The notes under the pieces: model-generated
The model's input: the letters and a program-made list of their open reading frames with translations, nothing else
Databases searched by the model: none
What the model was told of the DNA's origin: nothing
Shown: in pieces, positions 12,223 through 31,765 of the stretch
How the letters are laid out: each line of letters starts with the position of its first letter
How positions within the stretch are numbered: position 1 is the stretch's first letter
Assembly: GCA_020847175.1 (NCBI GenBank)
Contig: JADLCM010000003.1
Coordinates: 1-64,000, forward strand
Length of the DNA stretch: 64,000 nt
Direction of reading: 5' to 3'
Source: Phycisphaerales bacterium
GTDB lineage: Bacteria > Planctomycetota > Phycisphaerae > Phycisphaerales > UBA1924
Translations under genes and position numbers: made by a program

Positions 12223-15200
12223 TCACTTCGAGCCCGCGCGCCCGGTGTCCGCCATCACGAACGGCGCCTCAGAAAGCCAGCGTCGCACCCGCGCGCTCAA
12301 CGTCGCTTTGCCCGCACCCGCGCCCGCGTCGAACGCAAACCGGACGCCGACGTCCGACCACCCCTTCCCGAGCGAAATCGTGCTGACTGCGCTCACCTGG
12401 TCGAGCGCCAACTCAGGCGGCGACAACGCCGACCCCCCCACCACCCCGAATGACATGCGCCCGTCCGCTCCCGGCGCGCCGACCAGTTCCGCGAGGTTCC
12501 CCACCAGGTCCGCCACGCCATTCCCGCTCTCCGCATCGCGGATCCACAACACCCCGTCGTCCGACGTCTCACCCGGGCTTGCCTTGTCCGCCGAAGGGAA
12601 TTTCGACCCCATGGGCACGAACACGCTCGTGTCCGGCCACGATGGAATCATCTGCGTTTGCGTCTCGACCGTGCGCTTGAGCTGACGCAACCAACGCGAA
12701 TCCCGCAGGTTTCGATTCAACGTCGGATGATGATCGAGGGCCGCCAGGTATTCCGCCGGTGCCGCAAGGCGGCAGCCCGCTCGCCCCGCGAGCGACAACG
12801 CGGCAGTCGGCGACACCCAGTTCAGGGGGGAGTTTCCGGATGGCGGGAGCGGTGCCAGCCCTTCGGCATAGATCGGAACCTTGGGTTTCCCAAGCTCCTT
12901 CGCCAGCCAGCGCTCGTTGGGGACAAGCTGCTCTTTCGCCTCGCTCCAGCCCCACGATCGAATCCCCGTCCAGGTCGTCGAATCCGTCCTGGCGTCACGA
13001 AGCTGCACCCAGGTGGGCTCCAGCGATTTCCACGCCTCGTCCCCCGAGACCAAGGCGTTGACCTGGTCAATTGTCAGTTCCGTCGCAGCCAGATAGAAGG
13101 GTCCATCCACCCCACGTTCCGGGGAGGGTTCGATGCGGACGAACTCTATCGATGTGGAGCCCTGGACGAACCTGAGCCGGGCGCCCCCGTCCATGCTCGT
13201 GCCGCGCCAGCCGACCGTCGCCGGGCCGAGCGTGACCGGATCGACAGCGGGCGCGGTTGATCCGTCATCGTCCAGCGCGGCCTGCCCGGCATCGAGCCAG
13301 GCCCGAGAGATTCCGCTTCCCCGCTGCGCCGCAACGAACGACGAGACCTGGGCGCGTAGTGCTCCGTCGTCACCCTCCGCGATTGCGCCGATCGCGTCGC
13401 GCAGGGCCCTTACCTCCAGGTTGAACCGGGTGCGAGCGGACAATGCCGCGACGTTTGCGTCGCTGGGACGCTCGCGCGCGAGCGCATCCAGCTCATCGCT
13501 GCTCCCGGCCCGCTCCATCGCCGAGACCCAGCGGGCTGCCCCCACCCGGCCGCCTTCCGCCGCGAGTTCCGCCGCGCGCCCGGCATCCCCAAGCGTTCGT
13601 GCCACCGCGGCGATGTGTTCGCCGGCGCGCCGGTCGGCCCTGAGCTCGTCGATGCCCGTGGGCCAATCGCCGAGCGCTCCCAGGCGACGCCAGGCCGCGA
13701 TGCAGAGTGCCGGGTCGCTCTCCTCCAGCGCCACATGGATGAGCCCTTGCCGGTCGCCGGACGTGCTGATCGCCTCGATCGCCCGAACGCGTGCGAGGGG
13801 CTCGGTGAGTGCGTCGTGCAGCGACGCGAAGGCCGGGCTGGCGGACCACTCGGCAATGACGGATCGGGGACTTTCCGCGAGTTCGCCTCTGGCATCTAGC
13901 GCGCCGACATCTCGTCCGACCCGCTCCGCGAGGGCCTTGGCGTGCCCGGCCCAATCGCGCAGCCCCGTTGCCGCCTGCGCTCGGGCGGTTCGTCCCGCTT
14001 CGTCCTGCACGTCGAAGGCGAGGGACCGCCAGGGCGTACCCGCGATTGCCTGCACAATGGCTGCCTCGCGGGCCATGCCCGCCGCGCCGCGAAGCTGCCC
14101 CGCATCGACTCCCGGCACGACGGGAGCCTCAACCGGCGGCATGTCGCTCTCGACGCCGATCAAGAAGGCCCGGAGTTCGTCCGCCCCGCGTTTGAGGGCG
14201 ACAAAGCTGCTCTCATCGGAGTGGACGCTGAGCAGTTCATCGCGATGGCCGGCCCACGCCCGGTCAACCGCGGACGACCCCGAAGGCGAGATGGTGTCCA
14301 GGCCGCGCAGTGTGTCCACCAGGGCCTGGAAGCCCCCGGCGCACTCGGCCTGCACGAGGCCGAGGTCCGACTCGAACGACGCGAGCGAGGCCAGCACATC
14401 CTGAGTTCCGCCGACGATCTCGGCGCGCCGGCCCTGCGTCCAGGGCGCCTCGGCGAGCGACTGCACGCGGCTCTTCGCGGCGCCCAGGCGGGCGCTGAGG
14501 GTGGCGATCTCAGTTCGCTCCTGCCCGGCGCATGCCTGCATCACCTCGTCCAACCGCTTCTCGGCCCGGCTGATCGAGGCCGCGAGCGTTCGGCGCGGGT
14601 CATCGGCGGGATTGAGCGCCAGGTAGCGATCGCGCCGGGCCTCCACGAGCCACGACTCGATCGCCGCGATGCGCATGGGCGCTGGCCCGCCGTCGCCGAG
14701 GGCCGCGTCGCGCGCGAACACGTCGTGATCGACGCGCGTCCACCCGTCCGCGAGGAATCGTTCGACGCGGCCGCCCACTTCCACGGCGCTTCGCACATCG
14801 AGGTTGAACGCGGCGAGCGCATCGGCAAGGCTCTCGGGCGCCGGCGCGCCCGCGGCGCGCCCCGTCTCAACGAATCGCTGAACCACGTCAATCTTGCTTG
14901 CGCTGAGTGCTCCCGCGAGGCGATCAAACTCGCGCAATGTCGCGGCCGCTTCGCCCAGCGCCGGCGACAGGCGGGCGAGCGCGCTCACCGACCGCACGAA
15001 ATCGGCCGGCGCATCGAGCGACAGGCCCGCGTCCAGCTGCGCCAACCCCGCGCTCACCCCCGCCCACCCCATCGCCCCGGCCCGTTCGCGCACCAGCGCA
15101 AGGTCAGCCCGCGCCGGCCATGCCGCCGCCTGGGTGTCGCGCCGGATGCCGTCGAGGAGGTCGTTCACATCGCGGGTGCGCTTGATCCCCTCCGGTGTGG

Positions 15201-16638
15201 CGGCCTTGGATGGCGGTTCACTCGCCAACTGCACCACGCGCACTCCCGAACGGTCGCTCAAGGACCGTGGGTCGAGGCGGGCCGGATCTTGCAGCACGGA
15301 CACGAGCGCGCCCGCAAGGTGCGGATCTGCCCGGAGCGCGTTGATCGCGTCCGGTCGCTGCAATGGACGTATCCACTGCTCGTAGTCGTTGCACCAGCGC
15401 TTCCAGCGTTCGAGTTCGACCCCCGCGAGGCGCGGCTTCTGGTCGTCCTCGCCGCTCCCCTGCGAACCCTTCTCCCCGTCGTCGTCCTCCGGCGCTTCGC
15501 CCGAGCCGGAACCTCCGCCGGAACTGAGCAGCACCATGCCCAGGATGACGGCCCCGACCGCCCCCACCCCGCCCAGGATGAGACCGAGCGGCAGGGGCTT
15601 CCGCGGACGGGCGGGGCTTCGGGCCGGCCCGCTCGCGGGCGAGGGCTCGCGCCGCACCGGGCGCGCCGGCTCGCTCGGCGCCTCCTCGTTCACCGGCCGG
15701 TCGATCAGCGCCTGGGCTTCACGCACGAAGGCATCGTCGAGCGTGTACGGAATGTCGCTGGCGCACGGGATCGCCACTTCGCCCGCCCGCACACAGAACA
15801 GATCTTTCGTCTCCGCGTCACCCACGATCACGTCCAGCCAGCGCTCCCGTTCAGGGGCAATCAACAGCAGCGCGGCGTTGCGGCTCAGGTGCTCCTCGCA
15901 GAAGTACATCCACGCCAGCAGGGCTTCACTCGCCGGCGCGAGCCCCTGCGGCACACGCAGGTGCTGGGCCCTCGCCTCGGCGGCCCGATTGAACATCGCG
16001 GTGCTCCGGCCCGTGAGGGGGCGATAGGCCGCCATGTCGCGCTGCAACTGGTACAGCACCCGGTGCATCCCGAGTCGCTGCGGTCCGAGAGTGTCGCTGT
16101 CGGCCAGTCGCTTGGTGGCGCTGACCGCACGCGGGCCCTCCGGGGGCGCGCTCGCCGCCCGGGCCGCGAGGTCCGCCCGCGCGGTCTCCAGCGCGGCCAC
16201 GACCCCGCCCGGTGAAGTCGCCAGTTTGCACTCGCCTTCAAGTTGGGCCAATCGTGAGAGAACGACGCGGCAGGCGAACTCGACCGAGAGCCCGGAACAC
16301 TCCGCGCACACCACCATCGGGTAGCGGCTGCGCCCCTTGCCGTCCGTGCTCGACCAGAACCGCCCGGCGATCACGCCCCCGGGGGCACGGGCCAGGAAGA
16401 CATGATTGAAGCCCTCCACCGCCGCGCCCGGCGCGAGCGCCTCCCACGTGCCCGCGTCGATATTGCCGTTCATACCTTCGAGGTAGATGACGCGCTTGAT
16501 CTCGATGAGCTCGGGCGTGTCAAGCCCCTGGTCGTCGAGGTGGTCGTCCCACGCAGGATGCTTGCCGAAGGCGCCCAGACGCACCTCGGGGGCCGCGCCC
16601 TCGCCTCGAAGCATGCCCAGTCCGAAACGTTCAGACAC
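12223..16638 (-). CDS. TagF-domain / FGE-like-domain fusion, single-pass membrane protein of the T6SS island
   Basis: A 1,471-residue protein. The N-terminus matches TagF, a T6SS post-translational regulator, with GAFGKHPAWDDH and the later FWSSTDGKGRSRYPM segment, equivalent to the family's 'PSxDxxGRxxP'. A Pro/Arg-rich linker and one membrane span (LGLILGGVGAVGAVILGMVL, about residues 348-368) follow. About 800 largely helical residues predicted to be periplasmic come next. The C-terminus (about 1165-1450) is FGE/SUMF1-like, with GCRLAAPAEY, a NLAEL segment, VGGSALSPPE and SDVGVRFAFD. No Cys occurs in the GGS-to-GFR segment where catalytic FGEs carry their active-site cysteines, so a binding role is more likely than catalysis. 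The GTG start at 16638 has AAGGAG eight bases upstream and lies 30 bp after the tssM stop. The paired architecture with the kinase-like protein at 24771-29126 is striking. Confidence 0.8.
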   Translation of the reverse strand: MSERFGLGMLRGEGAAPEVRLGAFGKHPAWDDHLDDQGLDTPELIEIKRVIYLEGMNGNIDAGTWEALAPGAAVEGFNHVFLARAPGGVIAGRFWSSTDGKGRSRYPMVVCAECSGLSVEFACRVVLSRLAQLEGECKLATSPGGVVAALETARADLAARAASAPPEGPRAVSATKRLADSDTLGPQRLGMHRVLYQLQRDMAAYRPLTGRSTAMFNRAAEARAQHLRVPQGLAPASEALLAWMYFCEEHLSRNAALLLIAPERERWLDVIVGDAETKDLFCVRAGEVAIPCASDIPYTLDDAFVREAQALIDRPVNEEAPSEPARPVRREPSPASGPARSPARPRKPLPLGLILGGVGAVGAVILGMVLLSSGGGSGSGEAPEDDDGEKGSQGSGEDDQKPRLAGVELERWKRWCNDYEQWIRPLQRPDAINALRADPHLAGALVSVLQDPARLDPRSLSDRSGVRVVQLASEPPSKAATPEGIKRTRDVNDLLDGIRRDTQAAAWPARADLALVRERAGAMGWAGVSAGLAQLDAGLSLDAPADFVRSVSALARLSPALGEAAATLREFDRLAGALSASKIDVVQRFVETGRAAGAPAPESLADALAAFNLDVRSAVEVGGRVERFLADGWTRVDHDVFARDAALGDGGPAPMRIAAIESWLVEARRDRYLALNPADDPRRTLAASISRAEKRLDEVMQACAGQERTEIATLSARLGAAKSRVQSLAEAPWTQGRRAEIVGGTQDVLASLASFESDLGLVQAECAGGFQALVDTLRGLDTISPSGSSAVDRAWAGHRDELLSVHSDESSFVALKRGADELRAFLIGVESDMPPVEAPVVPGVDAGQLRGAAGMAREAAIVQAIAGTPWRSLAFDVQDEAGRTARAQAATGLRDWAGHAKALAERVGRDVGALDARGELAESPRSVIAEWSASPAFASLHDALTEPLARVRAIEAISTSGDRQGLIHVALEESDPALCIAAWRRLGALGDWPTGIDELRADRRAGEHIAAVARTLGDAGRAAELAAEGGRVGAARWVSAMERAGSSDELDALARERPSDANVAALSARTRFNLEVRALRDAIGAIAEGDDGALRAQVSSFVAAQRGSGISRAWLDAGQAALDDDGSTAPAVDPVTLGPATVGWRGTSMDGGARLRFVQGSTSIEFVRIEPSPERGVDGPFYLAATELTIDQVNALVSGDEAWKSLEPTWVQLRDARTDSTTWTGIRSWGWSEAKEQLVPNERWLAKELGKPKVPIYAEGLAPLPPSGNSPLNWVSPTAALSLAGRAGCRLAAPAEYLAALDHHPTLNRNLRDSRWLRQLKRTVETQTQMIPSWPDTSVFVPMGSKFPSADKASPGETSDDGVLWIRDAESGNGVADLVGNLAELVGAPGADGRMSFGVVGGSALSPPELALDQVSAVSTISLGKGWSDVGVRFAFDAGAGAGKATLSARVRRWLSEAPFVMADTGRAGSK

Positions 16639-16668
16639 GTGCGCGTCTCCTTGCGCTCTCACGAACAC

Positions 16669-19600
16669 TCATCGGGGCTGAGGCCAGGTCGTCGAACGGG
16701 GCCAGTTGCCGAGGGCCGCGCGAGGGTCGCGCTGCGGGAAGCGGACACCGAGCATGTAGGTGCCCGTCCAGCCCCCGGGCTTGCTCAGGCTCACCGGCAC
16801 GGCATAGACCCCGGGCTTGGTCGCGACCGCCTCCCACTTTCCGGTGCGCAGGGTGCCCAGGATGCTCCACGTCGGGTCGAGACGGACCTCCTGCGTCACC
16901 CCCACGCTCCCGCCGGCCTCGAAGTTCTCGTGGAATTTGATCGTGAGAGGCTGCCCGGGACAGACGCTCAGTCGCACGCCCGTCTGTTCGTTGGCCGCGC
17001 GCGAGGGAATCAGGAAGATCTGACCCAGCCCGCCCCCGGAGACTTCAATCTCCTTGAACTGGTCGGCGGCCTGCCGGTGCGTATCGGAAAGGTCGTAGGG
17101 CAGAATAACGAGTTCCCACGCGGGGTACGCCGGGTTGTCTACGTCGGGCCCGCGGAGGAACTCGACCACCGGCTGCACGCCCTTGGTGAACCAGTCACGC
17201 TCGCGCTGGTCGGTGACGGCCCCACCGCCCCGCATCGCCGCGAGCGCCTCCTCGGCATCGGAGAACCCTTGCGGCAGGCGCGCCCCGTCGCGGATGAGCG
17301 AGCCCGTGGGCGCTCCGCTGGGCGATGGCAGCACAATGCCCTGCACCTCCTTGAACGTCTGCAACATCTCGTCGCGGGTCAGCGAGAGCGTCTCGTCGGC
17401 GCACAGAGGCGCGGCACGCCGGTTGCGCATCAGCGACCGGAAACTCTCCGTCGCGAGGCGGTTGCTCTCCGCCGAAAGGTCGGTGAGCGCCGCCTTGACG
17501 ACGTTGGACCAGTACGGCACGCGCGCCGGCTTGGACCCCTCCCCGTAGACCTTGGCCTCGGTGCCGAGATACTGCTCCGCGAAGTCATCGGGCGTCATGC
17601 CCAGCACCTGGGCGGAAGCCTGGCCCGCGGTCTCGGGGAGTGAGCGCCACTTCGACCGCACCGCGCTGAGCGCCTCGCGGTAGGTCTCGTCCGCCAGGCC
17701 CGCGGCCGCGGCCGAGAGCCTCGCCTTCGCATCCTTCACACCCTGGGGCAGGCGCGAGGCGAACGGCTCGGGCATCTCCAGGGCCTTGACGGCCTCTTCC
17801 GCCAGCTGGCGGAGCGCTCCCGATGTCTCAGTCAGGTTCATCTGGCGCAGCGCCTCGCGGGTGTTGGTCCAGTTGGCGTCCGTGCGCACGGTCATGGCGC
17901 GTTCAAGATCCGTGGACCAGTATGCCCCGTAGGCATTGACATACTCGCCCACCGCGCGCTCCACGTCGGCCACGCCGTCCTTGAGCACCGCGGCATCGAG
18001 GGGCGCGATCGCCCCCGCCGCCCCGGGCTCGATGCGCCCGCGCATGGCGACCACCGCGTCAATCACCGTGCGTGCCACCGCCGGGTGATACGACGCGTCG
18101 AACGCGCCCCCCTGCATGTCCGGGGCGAGCGGAAGCACCGGGCGCTCCACATCCGGCACGCCCGCGGCCTGGGCACGCGCCTTGACCAGTCGTGCGAGCG
18201 CTTCGGCCCCGCTGATCGTTCCGCTCGCCCTCGCGATCGAAGCGTTGGTCTCGAACCGTTGCGCCGCCTGGATCGCCCGCTCGGCGAACGTCTTGGCGTT
18301 CGTCATGGCGGGGGCGCTGGCATCCTGCGGCAGCAGCTGCGGGCCCAGTGTCGCAGATGCCGCCTCGCTTCGGCGCTGCGCGCCCGCCAGCTCGTCGCCC
18401 AGGCTGAAGAGCTCGCCCGATGGGGTGAAGGCCTGCGCTTCGGTGAGACGGTCCGCCGCGGTCTTGTACAGCGCGAAGCGACGCTCAAAGGTGAGCGCAC
18501 TGTTCGCGTCCCGCCGGACGAGTTCGGCCCGCTCCAGCGCGGCAAGCTGTTCGCCCAGCGCCGTCTTGCGGGTGTTCCAGTCGGTCTCAAGGCCCTGCCA
18601 GCCGAGCTCAAGCCGGTCGCGCACGCCCTTGATCGATCCGGGCTCGTCCACGCCCGCTTCGGGCTTGGGCCCGAGCGCGCCCGTGAGCAGGTCATACTCG
18701 GTTCGGGCGGCCCCCCGGGCCTCGGCGATCGCCGCGTCGAGACGGCGCGCCAGGCCGGGTTCGCCGGCGCCGAGATTGAGCGCCCCCACCGCGCCGTCCA
18801 CCCGGGCCTTGGCGCTCTGAAGCGCGCCGAAGCGGCGCAGGTACTCCGCCGAGGCCTCGGTGTACTGCGCCACCGTGTCCACCTTGTCGAACCCGATCAC
18901 CTGCAGAATCTCGCCCTCGATCCGGGTCATCTCTGCAATCGCGCCCTGCAGGTCGCCCAGCTTCTTGAGGGTGTCGGCCCCCGGCAGGTTATTGCCCTTG
19001 ACCGCCGCCTGCGCCCAGTTCTCGATAAAGCGGCCGACGGCGATGCCCGTCGGGTCTCCGTCGTCCATCGATGCATCAACGATGTCGCGGACCTTGCCCG
19101 GGGGCCAGGAGCGCCCGCCGCCCTTGTCGCTGTACGTCCAGTCGATGACATCCTGGAGCTGCTGGATCTGCTGGGGCACCTCGCCGGCCAGTTCTTCGCT
19201 GTCCACGCAGAACGTGGCAACGGCCCGCAGGTCGAAGACGGTTCCCTCCGCCGGCGCACGCCCGGCGCACGCGGCCCGCAGCCGCAGGGCCTGCGCCAGG
19301 GCGTTGGTCTCCGCGGCGCCCTGCCACGGGGCTTTCTCGCCTCGCCTGAATCGATCAAAAAGGGCGCTGGTGCAGGGCTCGAGCACGATCTCGCTCAGCA
19401 CCTGCTCGTGGGCCGGCGTCTCCTTGGCGAAGACATCTCCCCCCGTCAGGCCCGCGATCGGGCGGAACATGAGGGGCGTGTCTTCTCGGGTCGAGGCCAT
19501 GTCGCGCGTGCGCAGGGGCAGCTCGAACTTCTGAAGGTCCTTGCCGTCCTCCCGCACCACCGTGCGCCGGTCGCCCTCGGGCGTGAAGTTGGTATCACCC

Positions 19601-21153
19601 CCCGCGTAGACATACAGGCGATTCACTTCGTCGCGCTGCTTCGGGGGCGTGATGAGCCCGCGGTCCGCCGGATCGACGTCGGGCCCCATGACCTTGGCGA
19701 TCTGGCCCCAGAAATCGCTCGAGGCGCCCACGGCCTTCTCGTGCCCCTTGGCCGCGAACCAGGTCGCTCCCATCAGGCCCATCGTGCCCAGCACACCCGT
19801 GCCCAGGAGCAACCGCCGGCGCGCCTGCTGCTGCTTGCGGATGTTCGTCGCGTTGGTCACCAGGCCCTTCTCCTGGAAGACCTTGGACATGAACAGGTCG
19901 CGCAGAAAGAAGGCGGTGTTGCGCGTGAACCCGCGCCCCTCGGGCAGGCTCTTGACATCCACCTTCAGGGCCTCGGCAATCTCCGCGTCAAGTTCCGCGC
20001 CCTCCTGCATCGAACTGGTGAAATAGATGCCCCGGAGAAAGAGCGGCTTGGCCGACCACTCGCCGGCGACGAAGATCATGTCCAGGTACATCCGCAGTCG
20101 CGGCGCGATCTTCAGCAGGCTGTCCGGAAAGGAGTAGAGCGAGTCCACTTCATCGGTGCGCCGGCCCGCGATCGGATCTTCGGTGTGCACCGGGTCGAGC
20201 AGGATGCCCAGGCGCCGGCGCCGCAGGCGCTCCGCGACCTGGCGCAGGTGGTTCTCGACCTGATCAGCCTTGAACGGCGTCTCCAGGTCGCCGGGGTTGC
20301 TCCACCCCAGGATCTGGCTCTGCATCTGCGGGTCCGTCACGTCCTTGAAGAACTCGCGGAACCCGTTGATGAGGTCGCACTTGGTGATGACCACGAAGAC
20401 CGGGAATCGCACCCCCAGCGCCCGCTGGATCGCGTCAAGCTGCTCCGCGATCCGCCCGCCCTTCTTCTGCAGCGCGTCCGCCGTGTCGGCGATCAGGCTG
20501 TCGGCCGGGATCACCAGCAGCATGCCGTTGATCGGGCAGTTCGGACGCCCGGAACGCAGCAGCGTCAGAAACTCCTTCCACTCGCTCGTCTTCCCGGGCT
20601 CGACCTCCTCAAACATGAGCCGCCCGGCGGTGTCCAGCACGATGGCGTGGTTGGTGAACCACCAGTTCATGTTGAGCGTGCCGCCCGCGCCCTGGAGCTG
20701 GTCCTGAAGGCCCGGCGGGAATCCGACGTTGCAGTGCCTGATGGCCTCGGTCTTGCCCGAACCGGGTTCACCCACGAGCAGGTACCAGGGCAGGGCGTAG
20801 ATGTCCTTGCCGTGCTCGCGGAAGGTCGCGACGCCCTCCTCGAACCGGCGCCGCAGGTCATCCAGGCGCGCCCGGCGCGCCGCGTCGGAGACACCCATCG
20901 GCGCCGCCCCGGCGTTCTCCGCCAGTCGCCTCTCGAAGGGCTTGGCCTTGCCCTTGTCGATCATCTTCAGCACGCCCTTGAAGATGACCAGCGCAAGCCC
21001 CGCAAGCGCCAACCCCAGGATGACCACGCCGACGTACTTCGGGGCCGCGAAATACGTCGCGGCGACGATCAACCCCGCCAACGCCACGAGGCCGCCGCCC
21101 CTCACCGAGGCGGGCAGGCTCTGGATCCTCTGGATCATGCCCACGTTCAGCAT
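16669..21153 (-). CDS. tssM: TssM (IcmF), T6SS inner-membrane core protein
   Basis: A 1,494-residue protein, longer than most TssM proteins. Two N-terminal membrane spans (about 20-37 and 41-58) are followed by a cytoplasmic NTPase-like domain. That domain has an intact Walker A motif GEPGSGKT at 128-135, the TNHAIVLDTAGR motif, and the VITKCDLINGF region, all diagnostic of IcmF. A third span (about 447-468) precedes a long periplasmic helical region and a C-terminal beta-rich domain (GQPLTIKFHENFEAGGSVGV) that in the family contacts the TssJ lipoprotein. TssM is the central column of the TssJLM membrane complex. The start overlaps no upstream gene: ATG lies four bases after the TssL stop, with GGGAG nine bases upstream, which implies translational coupling. 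TssK, TssL, TssM and the TagF fusion form a tight operon. Confidence 0.95.
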   Translation of the reverse strand: MLNVGMIQRIQSLPASVRGGGLVALAGLIVAATYFAAPKYVGVVILGLALAGLALVIFKGVLKMIDKGKAKPFERRLAENAGAAPMGVSDAARRARLDDLRRRFEEGVATFREHGKDIYALPWYLLVGEPGSGKTEAIRHCNVGFPPGLQDQLQGAGGTLNMNWWFTNHAIVLDTAGRLMFEEVEPGKTSEWKEFLTLLRSGRPNCPINGMLLVIPADSLIADTADALQKKGGRIAEQLDAIQRALGVRFPVFVVITKCDLINGFREFFKDVTDPQMQSQILGWSNPGDLETPFKADQVENHLRQVAERLRRRRLGILLDPVHTEDPIAGRRTDEVDSLYSFPDSLLKIAPRLRMYLDMIFVAGEWSAKPLFLRGIYFTSSMQEGAELDAEIAEALKVDVKSLPEGRGFTRNTAFFLRDLFMSKVFQEKGLVTNATNIRKQQQARRRLLLGTGVLGTMGLMGATWFAAKGHEKAVGASSDFWGQIAKVMGPDVDPADRGLITPPKQRDEVNRLYVYAGGDTNFTPEGDRRTVVREDGKDLQKFELPLRTRDMASTREDTPLMFRPIAGLTGGDVFAKETPAHEQVLSEIVLEPCTSALFDRFRRGEKAPWQGAAETNALAQALRLRAACAGRAPAEGTVFDLRAVATFCVDSEELAGEVPQQIQQLQDVIDWTYSDKGGGRSWPPGKVRDIVDASMDDGDPTGIAVGRFIENWAQAAVKGNNLPGADTLKKLGDLQGAIAEMTRIEGEILQVIGFDKVDTVAQYTEASAEYLRRFGALQSAKARVDGAVGALNLGAGEPGLARRLDAAIAEARGAARTEYDLLTGALGPKPEAGVDEPGSIKGVRDRLELGWQGLETDWNTRKTALGEQLAALERAELVRRDANSALTFERRFALYKTAADRLTEAQAFTPSGELFSLGDELAGAQRRSEAASATLGPQLLPQDASAPAMTNAKTFAERAIQAAQRFETNASIARASGTISGAEALARLVKARAQAAGVPDVERPVLPLAPDMQGGAFDASYHPAVARTVIDAVVAMRGRIEPGAAGAIAPLDAAVLKDGVADVERAVGEYVNAYGAYWSTDLERAMTVRTDANWTNTREALRQMNLTETSGALRQLAEEAVKALEMPEPFASRLPQGVKDAKARLSAAAAGLADETYREALSAVRSKWRSLPETAGQASAQVLGMTPDDFAEQYLGTEAKVYGEGSKPARVPYWSNVVKAALTDLSAESNRLATESFRSLMRNRRAAPLCADETLSLTRDEMLQTFKEVQGIVLPSPSGAPTGSLIRDGARLPQGFSDAEEALAAMRGGGAVTDQRERDWFTKGVQPVVEFLRGPDVDNPAYPAWELVILPYDLSDTHRQAADQFKEIEVSGGGLGQIFLIPSRAANEQTGVRLSVCPGQPLTIKFHENFEAGGSVGVTQEVRLDPTWSILGTLRTGKWEAVATKPGVYAVPVSLSKPGGWTGTYMLGVRFPQRDPRAALGNWPRSTTWPQPR

Positions 21154-23259: not shown

Positions 23260-24192
23260 TCATGTCCGCCCCCGGCCCAGCAGCGGCAGCACGTAGTCCG
23301 CCATCGCGTGCATCATCTCCACTTCAAACGAGTTGGGGTCAAGCGACTGGCAGAGCTGCGAGTACTTCTTCCAGTACGCCACCTCCCAGGCCTCCCAGGC
23401 GCGCTTGCCCTCGTCCTTGGCGGCCGCCATCACCGCGTCGGGCTGGAGATTCTGCAATCGCACATAGGCCAGGTGCCCGGCCTGGCTCACCGAGGCGATC
23501 ACCGCCGCGGAGAGCTGGCGCAGGTCTTCAAGTTCCTGCTGAATCTCGTTCTGCGACACGTCCGCCCCGCCGTCGAGCCAGTGTCCGAGCGCCCGCTGCA
23601 ACTGCCCGCGCCGCTTCACGTTGGATCGGGGCGCCATCTGCTGCCAGGTCGCCCACACCACTTTGTCCAGGCGCAGCGTGAACTCGAGCAGCATCGCCAG
23701 CGCTTCCAGCGCACGCCCCGAGTTCGGCTGACCCTTGGGCCCCCCGGCGCAGAGCCCCCGCAGGCGCTGCAACGAGGCTTCCGGCCAGCTCCCCACCCCG
23801 CCCGAACTCAGCCCGGCCTCTTCGAGCGTGCGCCGCACCGCGAGCTTCTTCTCCTCCGGCAGGTCCTTGCAGAGGTCGATGAGTCGCTTGAGCACGAAGC
23901 TCGGGTCGCTCCACTCCTTCTGGTCCGCCGTGCTCCGCGTGCCCCCGGTTGCCGGGGCCGCCGCCCCGCCCCGTGACACGTCGTTGTCCCAGCTCGGAAA
24001 CCGGGCCGCGAGCAGATCGAGAAACTCGGCCCGGCTGTGCGCCACAACCCCCTGCAAAGCCCGCCCGATCTCATCCTCCAATTGCTCCCGGCGCAGGTCG
24101 GGCGCCTCGTCCGCCAGGTCGGACTGGATCGCCCGCAGGCGGGTCGCGAGGTCTTCAACCTTCGCCAGCAGATCGTGGTTGGCTGAACTCAC
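23260..24192 (-). CDS. T6SS-associated protein resembling the C-terminal domain of TagH/Fha (no FHA domain)
   Basis: About 310 residues, hydrophilic, with no signal peptide or membrane span. The C-terminal half (GRALEALAMLLEF, then LAYVRLQNLQPDAVM and RAWEAWEVAYWKKYSQL) has the pattern of the helical domain that follows the FHA domain in T6SS TagH/Fha proteins. The phosphothreonine-binding FHA domain itself is absent. In canonical systems Fha links the threonine kinase PpkA to the apparatus; here the neighbouring kinase-like protein also looks catalytically weak. The GTG at 24192 lies ten bases after AGGAGG and is preferred over the ATG at 24201, which is only one base from it. The gene ends 31 bp before tssK, so it is probably the first gene of that operon. 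The family assignment is by pattern only. Confidence 0.55.
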   Translation of the reverse strand: MSSANHDLLAKVEDLATRLRAIQSDLADEAPDLRREQLEDEIGRALQGVVAHSRAEFLDLLAARFPSWDNDVSRGGAAAPATGGTRSTADQKEWSDPSFVLKRLIDLCKDLPEEKKLAVRRTLEEAGLSSGGVGSWPEASLQRLRGLCAGGPKGQPNSGRALEALAMLLEFTLRLDKVVWATWQQMAPRSNVKRRGQLQRALGHWLDGGADVSQNEIQQELEDLRQLSAAVIASVSQAGHLAYVRLQNLQPDAVMAAAKDEGKRAWEAWEVAYWKKYSQLCQSLDPNSFEVEMMHAMADYVLPLLGRGRT

Positions 24193-24432
24193 GGGCCTCA
24201 TGCCTCCTCTGTCAGCCCTCCGGGGGCAAGGGGCATGATAAGGCCCGATAGCCGCGCGTGCCCGGACCGGTCCGCGCTTCCCGGTCCTTCACACCCGCCG
24301 AAGCGTGCGCCTGCTCCGATTGCGCCGCCCGGTACGTCCGCCCCCGCGCTCCCGCCGACTCTTCCGCTCTGTCCCCGTGCGCGCCCCGTCGATACCAACT
24401 CCGCCGCACGTCGGCTCACGGAGGAACCCGCC

Positions 24433-24770: not shown

Positions 24771-27700
24771 TCAGGGAGTCCAGTCATACACGGGCTCCCC
24801 AAGGACTGGCCGAACTCGATCGGCAAACCCTTGGCGAGCAGGGGCGAGCGCCGCATCGAACGCCAGCCGGAAGCCAACATCCGTGAACGACCTGCCCCGC
24901 ACCAAAGCCGCCGGAGTGCTCTTGAGCGCGATCGCCTCCGTCGCCCCCAGTTCAGGGGGCCACACGGCCGACCCCCCCATCACGCCCGTCTGGTCTGCCC
25001 CCATCGCACCGTACTCCGCGACATTGCCCAGGATGTTCGCGAACACTGATCCGCGGTTGGACGCATCCACCGGGTCGAACCAGAGCGTCCCGTCGCTCGC
25101 CGCCTCTGCGGGCACGGTGGCATCCCCTGCCGTCGGCGGCGTGTCGCTGACCTCCAGCGCCGCCCTGGCCGCCCCGACCGACCCCGAGTCGGGCCACACT
25201 GCCATGCCGAACTGCTGCGTCCGAGCATCTTCCAAGACCTGCAGGCGCGTGTGTTCGAGTTCGGTGCCAAAGACCGCATCCCGTGTGTTCCAGGTCGCCC
25301 CTCCCGCGGAGTTCGCCATCGCGATGCCCGCCGCGAACTCCCCCGGCGACGGCAGGCGGCAGCCGGCCCGCTCTGCCGCCAGGCGGGCCGCTTCGATCGA
25401 CACGCTCTGCATCGGAGAAGAATCGCCTGGTTTCCCAGGATCAAACCCGGCTGGGTAGGTTCCCGCCCCGGCCTGCTCCACGCCGATCCACTGCTGCCCC
25501 GCCTGAATCGTGTTGCCGGCAAACCGCCAGGTACGCGGGTTTCGATGGTCGCGGTCGGGCACCGGCATGGACTGCAGCTCCTTCCAGAAGTTCGGCGCCC
25601 GGAAGGCATCCCAGCCGCCGCTCCCCTCGACGATCGCCCGGAACATGCCCACCGAGACCTCGTTCTCGCCCAGGTACACCGCCTGCGTGGGCGTGCCGAC
25701 GCCCTCGAGTTTCCGGAACACCAGGCGCTGCGTGGCCCCGGTGGAATCTGAACGGGTGTACGTCACGCGCTCTACGGTCGAATCGCCCGACCGGCTCCAG
25801 CCCCTCGCACCCGGGCCGACGCTGTCCAGCGCGTTCACGCTCGGCGCGCCCGAACCTTCGTTGGCCATCCGCTCGCGGATGCGTGCAATCCAGTCGCTCG
25901 TCCCGGCCGGGGCCTCGGCCCCGAGGTCGGCCAGCCCGTCGGCGTAGTCCTCCAGCACCGGGGTGAAGCGCCGCGCGAGCGCTCCGTCATCGCCCCCCTG
26001 CGCCAGCGCCGCGTCGGCGTCGGCGACGAACTTGCGCGTGAGCAGGTTCGCCCGCATGCGCGCAGAGAGCTGCGAAGCCACCCCCGCAAAGTCGTCAAAG
26101 TAGAGCCTGGCGTCATCCAACTGCTGTACGCCCGTCACCTGTTCAACCGCCTCGCGGAAGCGATTGCCGCCCCCGGATTCGATCTCGCGCACCAGCGCCG
26201 TCGCGCGGGCCGGGTCACCCATGCTCCGCGCGTTGCGCCGGACCGACCGGTAGAGTTCGACCTTGGGTCGCAGGCCGTCGGGGCGCATCCAGTCGTCGCG
26301 GGCGACCAGGGCGCGCCATGCGAGCAGGGCTCTCGGAAAATCCGCTACGTTCTGGGCCAGCGATTCGATCTCGGGGATGCTTGCGGGGAGCGAATCGGGA
26401 CGCAGCTGCGCCGCCCGGGCCAGCACGGGGGCGACCAGCGGCTCGAGGTCCGCCCATGCCGGCCGCGCCGCGGCATTCGCGATCACATCACCCCACGCCC
26501 GCCCGCCGGGCCCCGCCTCCGCCGGGCCGTAGGCCCCCTCCATGAGTCCCTCGGCCTCTGCCAGGTCACCCAGCACCGACTGCACGTCGCTGATCCACGC
26601 CGTGTATCCGACCGCCGCGGCAGACGCCGCCGGGTCAAACCCGTCGCGCGGGCGACCGCGGCTCATCTGCGCATCGTCGATCATCGCCTTCGCCGCCGCA
26701 TCGCGCCGGCGCGCCGCCGCCCGGGCGAGCGCATCGCGGATCGCGTCCGTCTGCCCACGCAGACTCCGCGGCAGGACCGACGGCGCGGGCTCGGGCGTCA
26801 GCGGCCTCTCGATCGCGGCGAGCGCCTCCTGGAGCGACTGCATGCCCGACCGGAGCGCATCGTCGTTGCCGTCCGCCTCGTGGAGGTCCAGCAATGAGAG
26901 CTTCTGCTGCTCCAGCGCCGCGTTGACCGACGCGAGCCCAAGGGTCGAGACGTTCCGCACTCCCGCGATGCTCTGGCGCAGGCTCGTGCCCGCCGAGGCC
27001 TTCGCAAGTTCCTGCCCGAATCCCTCCAGCGTGCCCCGCACTCCTTCGTCGAGCCTTCGACGCAGGTCCGCCAGTTCCGCGATGAATGCCGCGCGCGCTG
27101 GTTCGTCCAGCCTCGCCCACCCGTCGATGGCTCCCTGCACCCGCGCGCGAACCTGATCCACGATCTCGCGCTGGTCATTCACCCGACCCTGAAACCCCGC
27201 CCGGCTGGTCGGACTCTCGATGGCCTTGGCACGCTCGGTGAGCTCGCCGAGACGCTCGATCAATCCGTTCGCCGACGCGAGCAGCGTGCGCGCGTCGTCC
27301 GGCAACGGCGTCACGGTCGTCTCCACCGGCCGTTCGGCCAGGGCCCGCGTGATCGATCCTCCGCACGAGGCCAGCCAGTCCGCCAACCCTTCGCCCCCGG
27401 GCATCGGCCCCTCGGGCCATGCGACATTGGGCGGCGCCTTGCCGCCCTCGGCGGCCTGCACGCGCGCGAGCAACTCGTCCGCCGCCGAACGCACGTTGCT
27501 GAGCGCATCCTCGAGCCTTCGCAGCGCCTGGTCACCGGTCGCGCCCGCACCGGCGGCCCCCTCCAGGGCCCGCAGCGCCGGCCTGACCCGTTCATCCACG
27601 GGCAGCCCGGCCTCTTTCAAACTCACAAGCGTGCGGTCCAGCGCTTCGTAACGCTCAAGAACCGTGCGTGCGACCGGCGCGGCACGCACCACGCCCACCA

Positions 27701-29126
27701 GGCCGTCTCCCGCACGTTCCCCGAGATCGTGGATTTCGCCGTACCGCTCGGAGGTGTACAAGCGGGGAGAGTCGCTCTCGCTCCAGACCTTGGTCAAGGC
27801 CTGGTCCACCGCCCGCGCCTCGGCGGCCGCCTGCGGCCACCCGAGCTCCTCGAATCGCGCTGCCGCGTCGATCAGGCTCTTGCGCGTCGGCCACCGCTCC
27901 GGGAGGATCGCACGCCGAATCCTGAGCACGGCCTCTCCGCCCTCGACCGCGAGAGCCTTGGCCTCCCGGCTCGACAGCTTTGATCCCGGCGCGTTTGCGG
28001 AGGCGATGACCGCGATCAGATCAACCTGGACCTTGAACTGGGTCGCGTATGGCCCGGCTTCATTGAGCGGGCTCCACTTCCAACCCGCGTCGCCCTCGCG
28101 GAGCGACTTGAGCGCCTCCTTGAGCTCACTGTCCAGGCCCGGATCCGCGTTCACGGCGTCGATCGCCCCGGAATCGAACGAGGCCATGCCGTCGAGCCAG
28201 ACCGTGCCGTAGTGCCATTCCTTCCACATGGTGCCCGGCGCTTCTTCGGGCACGACCGGCCCGCCGCCTCCGCCCTTGAGCACCCCGGAGAACCAGAGCC
28301 CCGCCCCGGCGCCGGCCAGCAGCACCAGCACCGCGCCGACCTTGATGAGTCCGCCGCCGCCCTTGCCCTTGCGCTCTCGCAGGGGCTTGAGCTCCTGTTC
28401 CACGCTCTCCAGCGTGAGCGAGCCGGGGGTGGCGCCGGGGTTGATGATCCGGTTGCAGAGCTCGCGCCACTTCTTGCCGTTCCTGCCGATCGCGCTCCAT
28501 GCAGGGCTCTCCCCGATCGGCCAGCCCGAGAGTTCGCGATAGGGTGTGAACAGGATCAACTGGTACAGCAACCGCCCCAGCGCCTGTACATCCCCGGTTT
28601 CGTCCGCCCCGGCATTCCCCGATCCCTTCGCCGCCGGATCGGTCAGGATCACCCGGGCCTTGTCCACCTGCCCGACGCGGTCGAGCATGACGTTGGTGGG
28701 CTTGAGCTCGCCGTGCCCGCGCCCGCAGGCCTGCTGAACTTCCCTCAGCCCCTGCACGATGCTCGACACGATGTTGTACAGCGCCGCTCCGTCGAGGCGC
28801 ACCCGCCCGCCGATCAGCCCTTCGAGCGAGCGCGGGTAACGGTCGGTGACGTAGAACGCGCCACCCGAGCCGCTCCCCATCTCGTGCAAGGGGGCCCAGT
28901 GCTTCGCCTTCGCCTCCGTCAGTTTCTGGAGCGCGCCGGCTCGGTCCAGAAAACTCTGGGCCGCCCGCTGCGCGTCGGCCCGGTTCTGCACGGTGTCGCC
29001 GACGTGCATGCTCTTGACGACGAAGTCGTCTTTGCCGCCCTTGCCGCTCAGGCGCGCGATGGACACCGTCCCCAGGCCGCCCCGGAAGAGGTCGCGCGTC
29101 GTTTCATACCGGCCGAACGTCGTCAT
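24771..29126 (-). CDS. Kinase-like / FGE-like fusion, single-pass membrane protein of the T6SS island (PpkA-like, probably degenerate)
   Basis: A 1,451-residue protein. Residues 1-250 have a Hanks-type protein-kinase fold: glycine-rich loop FRGGLGTVSIAR (14-25), ATP-binding Lys in FVVKSM (Lys38), and a catalytic-loop equivalent HGELKPTNVMLD near 139. That loop has Glu where active kinases have the catalytic Asp of HRD/HGD, and the DFG region reads LTDPAA. Activity is therefore doubtful. One membrane span lies at about 255-277, followed by about 850 mainly helical residues predicted to be periplasmic. The C-terminal FGE/SUMF1-like domain (about 1130-1440) has GCRLPSPGEF, NILGNVAEY, MGGSAVWPPE and TDVGFRLAFD, again with no Cys in the segment where the FGE active site sits. 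The layout mirrors the TagF fusion at the other end of the island. PpkA kinases in T6SS control activation by phosphorylating Fha. Confidence 0.8.
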   Translation of the reverse strand: MTTFGRYETTRDLFRGGLGTVSIARLSGKGGKDDFVVKSMHVGDTVQNRADAQRAAQSFLDRAGALQKLTEAKAKHWAPLHEMGSGSGGAFYVTDRYPRSLEGLIGGRVRLDGAALYNIVSSIVQGLREVQQACGRGHGELKPTNVMLDRVGQVDKARVILTDPAAKGSGNAGADETGDVQALGRLLYQLILFTPYRELSGWPIGESPAWSAIGRNGKKWRELCNRIINPGATPGSLTLESVEQELKPLRERKGKGGGGLIKVGAVLVLLAGAGAGLWFSGVLKGGGGGPVVPEEAPGTMWKEWHYGTVWLDGMASFDSGAIDAVNADPGLDSELKEALKSLREGDAGWKWSPLNEAGPYATQFKVQVDLIAVIASANAPGSKLSSREAKALAVEGGEAVLRIRRAILPERWPTRKSLIDAAARFEELGWPQAAAEARAVDQALTKVWSESDSPRLYTSERYGEIHDLGERAGDGLVGVVRAAPVARTVLERYEALDRTLVSLKEAGLPVDERVRPALRALEGAAGAGATGDQALRRLEDALSNVRSAADELLARVQAAEGGKAPPNVAWPEGPMPGGEGLADWLASCGGSITRALAERPVETTVTPLPDDARTLLASANGLIERLGELTERAKAIESPTSRAGFQGRVNDQREIVDQVRARVQGAIDGWARLDEPARAAFIAELADLRRRLDEGVRGTLEGFGQELAKASAGTSLRQSIAGVRNVSTLGLASVNAALEQQKLSLLDLHEADGNDDALRSGMQSLQEALAAIERPLTPEPAPSVLPRSLRGQTDAIRDALARAAARRRDAAAKAMIDDAQMSRGRPRDGFDPAASAAAVGYTAWISDVQSVLGDLAEAEGLMEGAYGPAEAGPGGRAWGDVIANAAARPAWADLEPLVAPVLARAAQLRPDSLPASIPEIESLAQNVADFPRALLAWRALVARDDWMRPDGLRPKVELYRSVRRNARSMGDPARATALVREIESGGGNRFREAVEQVTGVQQLDDARLYFDDFAGVASQLSARMRANLLTRKFVADADAALAQGGDDGALARRFTPVLEDYADGLADLGAEAPAGTSDWIARIRERMANEGSGAPSVNALDSVGPGARGWSRSGDSTVERVTYTRSDSTGATQRLVFRKLEGVGTPTQAVYLGENEVSVGMFRAIVEGSGGWDAFRAPNFWKELQSMPVPDRDHRNPRTWRFAGNTIQAGQQWIGVEQAGAGTYPAGFDPGKPGDSSPMQSVSIEAARLAAERAGCRLPSPGEFAAGIAMANSAGGATWNTRDAVFGTELEHTRLQVLEDARTQQFGMAVWPDSGSVGAARAALEVSDTPPTAGDATVPAEAASDGTLWFDPVDASNRGSVFANILGNVAEYGAMGADQTGVMGGSAVWPPELGATEAIALKSTPAALVRGRSFTDVGFRLAFDAALAPARQGFADRVRPVLGEPVYDWTP

Positions 29127-29230
29127 GCAGAGCCCGAAGGCACCCCCGACACAGCGGCGCGAGCCTGCCAGCCCGCGCCAGTTTCCGGGGCGAGGCCGCC
29201 CCCCGCATCACATGCCGCGTGCACGCTCAA

Positions 29231-29725
29231 TCACTTCTTCTCCGGCACCATCTCGGTGAGCAGCCGCAGCCCGCTGCGATCCACCCGCACCTTGATCCGG
29301 TTCCCGCTCCAGCGGGCCTGGTCGAGGGGCAGCACGAGCCGGCGCGGGTCCGACGCGCCGCCCGCATCGGGCACCGGGAGGTCAGTGAGCACAAAGAGCG
29401 TCTGCGCGCCCTTCCACTGGTTCCACAGGTCGTCCCCCGCCGCGAGTTCATCCGACGCCTTCGCCGACGACAGGTAGAACGTCTTCTTGGCGGCGTCGCG
29501 CCGCATGGCGCTCGACGGATAGGTGTTCATGTCCTGGCCCAGCCAACGCCCCACCTCGGCCTCGTTGCACGCCACGACATCCACTTCGACATTGCCGCCG
29601 GTGCCCACAGCCTCGCCGAGCATCACCTCGACGTTGTAGCGTCCCATGCGCGGCCCGCCGCCGCACCCCACGCCCGCAAGCCCCATCACCGCCACGACCA
29701 CGCTGAAGATCACGCGAAATGCCAT
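29231..29725 (-). CDS. T6SS-island lipoprotein, candidate TssJ
   Basis: A 164-residue protein with a lipoprotein signal ending in the lipobox AGVGC (Cys21). The mature domain is predicted mostly beta (GRYNVEVMLGEAV, FYLSSAKASDEL, RRLVLPLDQARW, IKVRVDRSGL), in keeping with the transthyretin-like sandwich of TssJ. Size, lipidation and position beside the T6SS genes fit TssJ, the outer-membrane lipoprotein that binds the TssM C-terminus. Classical TssJ sequence signatures are not clear to me, so this is a contextual call. It lies 12 bp downstream of the 675-residue unknown and 104 bp upstream of the kinase-like gene, all on one strand. Confidence 0.55.
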   Translation of the reverse strand: MAFRVIFSVVVAVMGLAGVGCGGGPRMGRYNVEVMLGEAVGTGGNVEVDVVACNEAEVGRWLGQDMNTYPSSAMRRDAAKKTFYLSSAKASDELAAGDDLWNQWKGAQTLFVLTDLPVPDAGGASDPRRLVLPLDQARWSGNRIKVRVDRSGLRLLTEMVPEKK

Positions 29726-29737
29726 GATGCACGCTCC

Positions 29738-31765
29738 TTACGGTCCTCGCCTCGCGGGGGCGCTCCGGTCCACCGCCGGAGTGACCATCGTGGCCGGCTC
29801 CCGGCGGGCGTCTTTGCCCCCTCCGCCAAGTCCCATCGCGAAGCGCCGGATCACGCCCGACACCTCGCGGTTGTAACTCCAGTCGATCAGGATCAGGCTC
29901 CGCGTCCGCACCAGCAGCGCCCGCAGCGCCGCCAGCACGGGCTCGAACACCGTGTGCAGCCCGCCCGCCCGCGCGGCACCGAAGTCCGGGCACGTCGAAT
30001 CCGGCCCCATGCCGGGGAACATCGACACCAGCAGCCCCAGCACCTCGCGCCACAGCTCCGCAGGCACCAGGTTGAGCGCCGACTGCGGGTCAAGTTCCTC
30101 GTGCAGCAGTCGCTGCGGCCCGAGCGAGAGCACCAGCCCGGGGTCCGAGGCCAGCGCCGCCCCGACGCGGTCCGCGAGCGGGGTGTCCGGCGAGTACGCC
30201 TCCGCCACCTTCCGGGCGAGGCTCAGCAGTTCGTCCAGGGCCACCGCGAGCGTGTTGCGCGGGTTGACAAGCAGCGTCCGCACCCCCAGCACTCCCAAGG
30301 CAAAGAGGTCGCAGGGCGAACTCGTCACCGGGATGACCTCGAAGGGCACCTCGCTCAGCACCACCCCCTCGCCGGCCTTCAGCGCTCCCTCCGCCGCGGG
30401 CGGCAGGCGCATCTCGATCGACTTGAGGCGCCATTCTCCTGCCGCCAGGGCCTTGTCGGCATCCAGCCGTGCGTACAGCGCAAACCTCGCACCCGCGAGA
30501 TTGATGGCCAGGCTGAGCAGGTCGTTCTTTGACGGGCTGATGCGCTCCTGCGTCAGGAACGTCCCCTCGACGAACTTCGCGCCGCCCTGCCCGTCGATCA
30601 CCTTGCGCAGGCGCAGCGTGCCGCGCCCCGAGGCGACCGCGTGCCCGAAGTCCGGCTGGTACACCCCGCCGGCCCCTGCGCCTGCGCCGACGAAGAACTT
30701 CGCTTCGCTCCCCGGGATTGGCAGTTCCGCCGCTTCACCCGGCCGGGCGAGCCCGGTGCGGGCGGACCAGTACGCGGGGAGCCCGCCTCCGCCGTCATTG
30801 AGATGCGTGCGAAACGACTCGGCGCTCACATTGAGCAGCGGGCACTGGGTGCGCTTGGTGAGCAGGTAGACCTCATCCACGGCGCTCGCCAGCGCCCGAA
30901 GCCGCAGGTGCAACCCCTCGAGCACGCGCCCGCTCCGCCCGTGCCGCCCCAGAAAGATGCCCGTTTCAAAGCCCTCATCACCGGCGCTCGCGGCGAACGG
31001 CACGCCGAGCTTGCCGTACTGGGGCCCGCTCCACGTCGCGCCCCCGAGCGCATCGACATACTGCTCGTATGACATCGGCGCGAACACCCGAGCGCCCATC
31101 CTCCCCGCGCCCGGGTTGAAGGGCACGAGGTCGCGCTGCTCCCCGGTCGCGGCCTCGAACGATGCCGCAGCGCCCGTCATGGGTGAATCGGGCGTCGCGG
31201 GCACGAACGGGGATTCCAGGCCGAGCGCCGGCGACCAGAGATAACGCGAGAGCGACGAGGCATACCCCTCCAGCCCCACTTCCTTGAGCAGCGATTCGTC
31301 GGTGCAGAGTTCGAGCACATGCTCAGTACCCTGAACTTTCGGGCGCACCAATTCCCGCTTCCGCGGATCGACGTAGAGCGCCACCTGCGGCTCGCGACCG
31401 GTGTCACAGGCCACGACCAGCCGAGGGTCCGCATTCGCGCCTCGCTCCCAGAGCTGCTGCCAGCGCCGGTCCAGCGCAGAGTTCGTCAGGGCCTCGCGGA
31501 ACGCTCGCGCGGTGGATGCCACGCCTTCGGGGTGCTGCACCCACACTTCAAGCCACTTGTGAACCACCCCGGAGGCATCCTGCAGCGCCCCGAGATACAC
31601 CCGCGCCTCGGCAGTCTCACGCAGCACCACCAGCGGCCCGGCCATCGGGTCCGGTCGCTCCGAAATGACCAAGGACACCCGCATCGGGCCGCCGCCATGC
31701 AGCGTCACGCCCGCAAAACCCTTGGGCAGCGCCGAACCCAAATCAGACAGCACCGGGGCGGCCAT
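29738..31765 (-). CDS. Uncharacterised 675-residue protein at the head of the T6SS island
   Basis: I do not recognise the family. The ATG at 31765 (MAAPVLSDLGSALPKG) is preferred because GGAG lies upstream at good spacing and sequence before it is not protein-like. It has no signal peptide or clear membrane span, so it is probably cytoplasmic. There is a Gly-rich stretch in the middle (GAGAGAGGVYQPDFGH). The C-terminal half contains SSPCDLFALGVLGVRTLL, a helical RKVAEAYSPDTPLADRV segment, and LIDWSYNREVSGVIRR near the end. It is followed after 12 bp by the candidate TssJ lipoprotein, so the two are surely co-transcribed. The Leu-rich LFALGVLGVRTLLVNP stretch resembles kinase C-lobe-like segments, but no catalytic motifs are present. 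A T6SS-associated role is inferred from context. Confidence 0.6.
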   Translation of the reverse strand: MAAPVLSDLGSALPKGFAGVTLHGGGPMRVSLVISERPDPMAGPLVVLRETAEARVYLGALQDASGVVHKWLEVWVQHPEGVASTARAFREALTNSALDRRWQQLWERGANADPRLVVACDTGREPQVALYVDPRKRELVRPKVQGTEHVLELCTDESLLKEVGLEGYASSLSRYLWSPALGLESPFVPATPDSPMTGAAASFEAATGEQRDLVPFNPGAGRMGARVFAPMSYEQYVDALGGATWSGPQYGKLGVPFAASAGDEGFETGIFLGRHGRSGRVLEGLHLRLRALASAVDEVYLLTKRTQCPLLNVSAESFRTHLNDGGGGLPAYWSARTGLARPGEAAELPIPGSEAKFFVGAGAGAGGVYQPDFGHAVASGRGTLRLRKVIDGQGGAKFVEGTFLTQERISPSKNDLLSLAINLAGARFALYARLDADKALAAGEWRLKSIEMRLPPAAEGALKAGEGVVLSEVPFEVIPVTSSPCDLFALGVLGVRTLLVNPRNTLAVALDELLSLARKVAEAYSPDTPLADRVGAALASDPGLVLSLGPQRLLHEELDPQSALNLVPAELWREVLGLLVSMFPGMGPDSTCPDFGAARAGGLHTVFEPVLAALRALLVRTRSLILIDWSYNREVSGVIRRFAMGLGGGGKDARREPATMVTPAVDRSAPARRGP

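What the first reader, a model, noticed from the sequence alone, without database searches (positions are those of the whole stretch)
12223..31765. Twin giant 'signal module - membrane span - periplasmic helices - FGE-like domain' proteins flank a T6SS membrane complex
Two proteins of about 1,450-1,470 residues share one plan: a TagF domain or a kinase-like domain in the cytoplasm, one span, about 800 helical residues, then an FGE/SUMF1-like C-terminus. The plan also resembles TssM. TagF, PpkA-like kinases and SUMF1 proteins are known T6SS accessories. Their fusion into two parallel envelope-spanning proteins beside TssK-L-M and a lipoprotein suggests an extended, perhaps planctomycete-specific, trans-envelope regulatory assembly. 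That last step is inference.
Basis: partly seen in the sequence, partly recalled or inferred. Interest (0 to 1): 0.78.

Follow-up and report, generated by a model that had tools for sequence, protein, structure and literature searches.

The report
Paired envelope sensors on T6SS regulators
In a group of Planctomycetota, two giant inner-membrane proteins carry the same sensor-like outer part, one on a dead kinase and one on the brake protein TagF; they sit in a toxin-injector gene cluster, and 18 related genomes have lost the injector's tail but kept the membrane parts, both regulators and a neighbouring surface-protein secretion pair.

Summary
Window proteins 24771-29126 (1451 aa) and 12223-16668 (1481 aa) are paralogues over ~1,075 residues (30% identity, E=6e-32). 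Each has a cytoplasmic signalling domain, one membrane span, ~800 helical residues and an FGE/SUMF1-like end lacking the catalytic cysteines. Corrections: (1) the 'kinase' is a pseudokinase: the HRD aspartate is missing in 51 of 54 homologues, and the neighbouring Fha/TagH-like protein has no FHA domain. (2) The helical middles are not TssM relatives (profile E 0.06-0.1; no TssM in the fold search). (3) The pseudokinase-FGE protein is the constant part, also in Verrucomicrobiota; TagF-FGE occurs in a subset, probably formed more than once; TagF is more often a stand-alone gene. (4) A two-partner secretion pair, TpsB and a giant TpsA, lies next to TagF. (5) Unexpected: 18 relatives have no T6SS tail gene tested (TssB and TssF 0/18, TssC and TssK 0/17), yet keep TssL, TssM with an intact P-loop, TagF, the pseudokinase-FGE protein (17/17 examined) and TpsB (15/15 covered loci). 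Best reading: twin signal-gated regulators of the TssL-TssM membrane complex, doing a job that does not need the tail. The mechanism is inferred.

The parts
28362..29126 (-). P0002 cytoplasmic pseudokinase domain (residues 1-255): K in beta3 (VVKS), HGELKP instead of HRDLKP, TDPA instead of DFG
28278..28334 (-). P0002 transmembrane span (residues 265-283)
25827..28277 (-). P0002 extracytoplasmic helical region (about 800 residues)
   Evidence: AlphaFold2 model; homologous to the P0001 middle
24771..25826 (-). P0002 C-terminal FGE/SUMF1-like domain (residues 1101-1451), catalytic Cys absent
15634..16668 (-). P0001 N-terminal TagF-like domain (residues 1-345; FGKHPAWDDH and DGKGRSRYPM motifs)
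   Evidence: follows tssM with no gap
15526..15582 (-). P0001 transmembrane span (residues 363-381)
13279..15525 (-). P0001 extracytoplasmic region, paralogous to that of P0002
12223..13278 (-). P0001 C-terminal FGE/SUMF1-like domain
16669..21153 (-). tssM (1494 aa, IcmF-related, P-loop GEPGSGKT)
21158..21841 (-). tssL / DotU (227 aa, short form)
21861..23228 (-). tssK (455 aa)
23260..24201 (-). Fha/TagH-like protein (313 aa): matches only the C-terminal region of TagH, no FHA domain
   Evidence: hhalign 1.7e-6; T6SS_FHA_C in 8 of 38
29231..29725 (-). TssJ-like lipoprotein (164 aa)
29738..31765 (-). conserved 675-aa protein of unknown fold ('P4'), present with tail-bearing clusters and absent from tail-less ones
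9997..11985 (-). TpsB/ShlB-family outer-membrane transporter (662 aa)
   Evidence: PF03865 E=1e-10
3..9830 (-). giant TpsA-like exoprotein, open at the contig end (3276 aa here, appears to continue on contig C25)
   Evidence: PF05860 TPS domain E=4e-21

Best explanation
P0002 and P0001 are paired, single-pass receptor-type regulators of the TssL-TssM membrane complex. Each has a periplasmic helical stalk capped by a non-catalytic FGE-like domain that reads an envelope state; the ligand is unknown, with the TssJ-like lipoprotein or the neighbouring TpsB/TpsA pair as candidates. In P0002 the signal reaches a pseudokinase, which acts by binding, not by phosphorylation, probably on the FHA-less Fha-like protein, and takes the place that PpkA plus TagR have in Pseudomonas. 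In P0001 the same ectodomain gates TagF, the brake. The activating and braking arms thus see the same or related signals through related receptors. Because 18 relatives keep this set without any tested tail gene, the target should be the membrane complex, and the module does a job that does not need the contractile tail, most likely together with the giant TpsA surface protein. Shown: anatomy, paralogy, lost catalytic residues, lost FHA domain, gene order, repeated absence of the tail with retention of the rest. Inferred: sensing, direction of the signal, binding partners, and any functional link to TpsA.
For: Paralogy over ~1,075 residues. A family-specific N-x-R-D motif in both receptor types (N in 48/51 and 26/26; D in 48/51 and 26/26). 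FGE fold without the Cys pair: 72 of 77 have no Cys between GGS and DVGfR. Pseudokinase: HRD Asp in 3 of 54, replaced by N in 28, whereas PpkA-type kinases from proteobacterial T6SS clusters read HRD...DFG (alignment A14). Fha-like protein with a TagH C-terminus but no FHA. No kinase, PP2C or FHA hit among the cluster ORFs scanned in one relative and none evident in the gene lists of the others. Gene order FhaC-TssK-TssL-TssM-TagF is that of proteobacterial tagH-tssK-tssL-tssM-tagF. In known systems TagF blocks membrane-complex assembly (PMC6082577) or binds Fha (PMC5995506), and outer-membrane TagQ with periplasmic TagR activates PpkA (PMC6657622), so an ectodomain on each arm fits. Tail-less genomes: TssC and TssK 0/17, TssF and TssB 0/18, against 7/7 tail-bearing controls for each. 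They keep pseudokinase-FGE in 17/17 examined, TssM P-loop intact, TpsB in 15/15 covered loci vs 23/36 in tail-bearing ones (Fisher p=0.0055). Tail status needs 8 changes on the TssM tree, at least 4 forced by well-supported branches.
Against: No experiment. No ligand or partner identified. TagF matches are weak. Pseudokinases can retain activity, and 3 of 54 homologues have the Asp. Most relatives are metagenome-assembled genomes; completeness is known here only for two tail-less ones (97% and 98%). The window's own genome does have a tail (TssC on C25, TssF on C39), so a tail-independent role in this organism is inference from relatives. TpsB is also absent next to TagF in 13 of 36 covered tail-bearing loci, so it is not needed for the T6SS form. 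The Fisher test ignores phylogeny.
Confidence: 0.5

Rival explanations
1. Structural scaffold: the two proteins are extra trans-envelope struts that widen or anchor the TssJ-L-M complex, with the FGE-like domains as docking pieces, as FGE-like GldK/PorK are part of the type IX secretion ring. This is.
For: Length and helical stalk; FGE-like T9SS proteins PorK and a GldJ-type model appear among the weak hits; constant neighbourhood of TssM.
Against: The cytoplasmic ends are signalling-type domains, not structural ones; TagF carries the stalk in only a minority of loci (21 fused vs 33 stand-alone), odd for a structural part; no relation to TssM.
Confidence: 0.2
2. Classical threonine-phosphorylation pathway in one polypeptide: P0002 is an active PpkA fused to a TagR-like activator.
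For: Kinase fold and similarity to PpkA-type kinases (1.8e-14); beta3 Lys in 33 of 54 and DFG Asp in 37 of 54.
Against: HRD Asp absent in 51 of 54, DFG Gly not kept, no FHA domain in the partner, no PP2C found in the cluster.
Confidence: 0.1
3. FGE-like domain as immunity: the periplasmic FGE-like end binds and neutralises incoming T6SS effectors, as described for FGE-like T6SS immunity proteins (Lopez et al. 2021, known here only as a citation in PMC13340143).
For: Same fold class and compartment; T6SS context.
Against: Constant placement beside TssL/TssM rather than beside effectors; fused to regulators; kept in genomes without tail genes; duplicated on the TagF arm.
Confidence: 0.08
4. Tail-less clusters are decaying T6SS remnants, and retention of the membrane part and regulators is a slow loss, not function.
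For: Joint absence of TssK, sheath, baseplate and P4; N-terminal half of the Fha-like protein often lost.
Against: At least 4 forced changes of tail status with the same retained set; mostly full-length TssM ORFs of 1,400-1,700 aa; P-loop intact in all; TpsB always kept where covered.
Confidence: 0.12

Closest known systems
PpkA-TagQRST branch of the threonine phosphorylation pathway (Pseudomonas aeruginosa H1-T6SS)
   Same: A transmembrane kinase-fold protein receives a periplasmic signal and acts on the Fha step of T6SS assembly. TagR is, from memory, also FGE-like (its paper was not held).
   Different: Receptor and kinase fold are one chain; the kinase lacks the HRD Asp; the Fha-like partner has no FHA domain; no PppA, TagS or TagT seen in the cluster.
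TagF and the TagF-PppA fusion of Agrobacterium tumefaciens (PMC5995506)
   Same: TagF-like domain encoded directly after tssM; TagF as a fusion partner has precedent.
   Different: Here TagF is fused to a membrane span and a large ectodomain, not to a cytoplasmic phosphatase.
FGE/SUMF1-like domains of secretion machines (GldK/PorK of T9SS) and sulfatase-modifying enzymes
   Same: FGE fold; like non-enzymatic members, no Cys pair.
   Different: Own N-x-R-D motif, ~800-residue helical stalk, membrane-anchored signalling domain.
Type VI secretion system (TssJ-K-L-M with TssA-B-C-Hcp-E-F-G-H-VgrG)
   Same: Core genes present in the window's genome and most relatives.
   Different: Giant TpsA and TpsB lie inside the cluster; in 18 relatives the tail genes tested are missing while the membrane set stays.

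Membership tests
TagF (PF09867/TIGR03373) | Clear single-sequence match to the family model | tested here: not met
   Window domain has no hit; best member E 1.3e-4 and 1e-4; PF09867 genome search 0 of 14
TagF (PF09867/TIGR03373) | Remote homology and gene position after tssM | tested here: met
   Only recurring family in 14/45 and 19/45 members; hhalign 1.7e-4 to 8.6e-4 on the shared G-K-x-P and D-x-x-GR-x-(F/Y)-P stretches; directly after tssM
PpkA-type Ser/Thr kinase | Protein-kinase fold | tested here: met
   Profile vs PDB kinases E=4e-10; vs PpkA-type kinases 1.8e-14
PpkA-type Ser/Thr kinase | Catalytic HRD Asp and DFG | tested here: not met
   Window HGELKP and TDPA; HRD Asp in 3 of 54
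PpkA-type Ser/Thr kinase | Phosphotransfer activity | not testable with these tools
   needs biochemistry
FGE/SUMF1 domain | Fold and family profile | tested here: met
   PF03781 15 of 19 (best 8e-12), PDB profile 3e-9, Foldseek FGE top hits
FGE/SUMF1 domain | Catalytic cysteine pair | tested here: not met
   72 of 77 have no Cys in that stretch
Fha/TagH | FHA domain | tested here: not met
   313-aa protein matches only the TagH C-terminus; no FHA hit in 38 members
TssM-like | Sequence or fold relation of the ectodomain to the TssM periplasmic region | tested here: not met
   hhalign 0.057 and 0.099; no TssM among the 50 structural hits listed
T6SS | Sheath and baseplate genes in the window's genome | tested here: met
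   TssC on C25 (1e-135), TssF on C39 (1e-222), TssA, TssB and Hcp beside TssC
T6SS | Sheath and baseplate genes in the 18 TssK-less relatives | tested here: not met
   TssC and TssK 0/17, TssF and TssB 0/18
Two-partner secretion | TPS domain plus ShlB/FhaC transporter as neighbours | tested here: met
   PF05860 4e-21 and PF03865 1e-10

The most novel reading that the evidence does not exclude
A tail-independent trans-envelope machine: TssL-TssM, controlled by two related receptors (pseudokinase and TagF) without phosphorylation, drives or licenses surface display or release of a giant TpsA protein through TpsB. The contractile T6SS is then only one of its outputs and has been lost several times.
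Probability: 0.3. Interest if true: 0.87.

Novelty: new variant of a known kind. Interest (0 to 1): 0.72.

Why it matters
How an envelope signal turns a T6SS on or off is an open question even in Pseudomonas. Here receptor and regulator are one chain, the kinase is dead by sequence, and the activating and braking arms carry related receptors, so signal reading can be studied apart from phosphorylation. The tail-less relatives give natural separation-of-function cases: they ask directly what TssL-TssM and TagF do when there is no tail to fire, and whether they serve a two-partner secretion pair.

Tried and rejected
Search of TagF vs PDB profiles: nothing. TagF tblastn vs plasmids: no match. Ectodomain vs TssM: no relation. 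P4 (675 aa): good model (pLDDT 82) but no confident structural relative, best E 0.04, weak ULK1/PINK1 hits only. TssJ-like lipoprotein vs PDB: nothing; TpsB vs PDB only weak CdiB 0.024, later settled by Pfam. One origin of the TagF-type receptor: AU test p=0.02 against, on a quick tree with long branches. L123 was first counted as tail-less for lack of TssK in the locus, but its genome has TssF and TssB and was removed. 'No Kin although covered' in 19 loci was mostly gene order: a pseudokinase-FGE or long FGE protein lies elsewhere in most of those genomes; only weak, short matches in three. No paper describing these systems in Planctomycetota was found in the held library.
Full report
What is there. 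On the minus strand the window carries, in order, a 675-aa protein (P4, 31765-29738), a TssJ-like lipoprotein (29725-29231), the pseudokinase-FGE protein P0002 (29126-24771), a 313-aa Fha/TagH-like protein (24201-23260), TssK, TssL, TssM, the TagF-FGE protein P0001 (16668-12223), a TpsB/ShlB-family transporter (11985-9997) and a giant TpsA-like protein that runs off the contig end (9830-3). A TpsA end, then TssA, TssB, TssC and Hcp, are on contig C25, whose first codons nearly repeat the last residues of the window's ORF, so C25 is probably the continuation; TssF is on C39.

The twins. P0002 and P0001 are paralogues from the ectodomain to the end (E=6e-32). Both have one span, a long helical region (modelled for P0002) and an FGE-like end. 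The FGE assignment rests on Pfam, PDB profiles and fold comparison. The catalytic cysteines are missing and a clade-specific N-x-R-D motif is shared by both receptor types. TagF is a remote but consistent assignment backed by its position after tssM.

Pseudokinase and missing FHA. In 54 homologues (four are duplicate records) the HRD Asp is present in 3. PpkA-type kinases from proteobacterial T6SS clusters keep HRD and DFG (A14). The Fha-like neighbour matches TagH only at its C-terminus. No kinase, PP2C or FHA family was hit among the cluster proteins scanned.

Distribution. A TssM-profile scan of 84,980 species genomes gave 149 relatives; the 80 best are from Phycisphaerae and other Planctomycetota, and Verrucomicrobiota, apart from a few records named as other phyla, which are probably mislabelled bins. 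Pseudokinase and FGE are in one ORF in 34 Planctomycetota-type and 5 Verrucomicrobiota loci. TagF is fused in 21, split in 2 and alone in 33 Planctomycetota-type loci. On the TssM tree the fused state needs 7 changes, at least 3 forced, and a single clade of TagF-type receptors is rejected at p=0.02. Fusion was therefore repeatedly gained or lost.

Tail-less relatives. Eighteen genomes have no TssK in the locus and no tail gene found. Genome-wide, TssC and TssK are absent from all 17 tested and TssF and TssB from all 18, while 7 of 7 tail-bearing controls have each. Two of the tail-less genomes are stated to be 97% and 98% complete. All 17 examined keep the pseudokinase-FGE protein, in the locus or elsewhere. 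TssM keeps its P-loop; TpsB is next to TagF in 15 of 15 covered loci, against 23 of 36 tail-bearing ones (p=0.0055, not corrected for phylogeny); P4 is absent in 11 of 11 with enough upstream DNA; the median Fha-like match shrinks from 305 to 170 residues (that call's tail-less set still held L123, which does not enter the TpsB count, but its pseudokinase lies behind TpsA, so at most 10 of 10 for P4 without it). Tail status changes 8 times on the tree, at least 4 forced. The tree is unrooted, so loss rather than gain is inferred from the rest of the T6SS.

Mechanism. From the literature, TagF blocks membrane-complex assembly in Serratia (PMC6082577) and binds Fha in Agrobacterium and Pseudomonas (PMC5995506); TagQ-TagR relay envelope signals to PpkA (PMC6657622; PMC10482370). 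A receptor on each arm fits this logic, with binding in place of phosphorylation. Since the set survives without a tail, its target should be the membrane complex. A link to TpsA is suggested by gene order and co-retention only.

Limits. No experiment; mostly draft genomes; quick trees; Hcp, VgrG and ClpV not searched in the tail-less genomes; P4 unexplained.

Noticed in passing
window 3-11985 (minus): Two-partner secretion pair (TpsB plus giant TpsA) inside the T6SS cluster, conserved next to TagF in 34 Planctomycetota-type loci.
   Followed up: yes
L078, L080, L089, L091, L092, L095, L101, L108, L109, L112, L114, L119, L124, L147, L148, L149; genomes G056, G071: TssL-TssM clusters without TssK; the genomes lack TssB and TssF (all 18) and TssC and TssK (17 tested).
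   Followed up: partly
window 29738-31765 (minus): Conserved 675-aa protein with a confident model but no known relative; present in tail-bearing clusters, absent in tail-less ones.
   Followed up: partly
window 24433-24708 (plus): Small 91-aa lipoprotein-like ORF on the opposite strand, between the pseudokinase-FGE gene and the Fha-like gene.
   Followed up: no
G000:C5, G044:C1, G040:C4, G033:C1, G068:C1: Second, weaker TssC/VipB-family hits (E 1e-32 to 1e-50) away from the cluster; possibly another contractile system.
   Followed up: no
L104, L123, L132, L150: Gene order varies: P4 or the pseudokinase gene inverted, or a pseudokinase gene behind TpsA.
   Followed up: no
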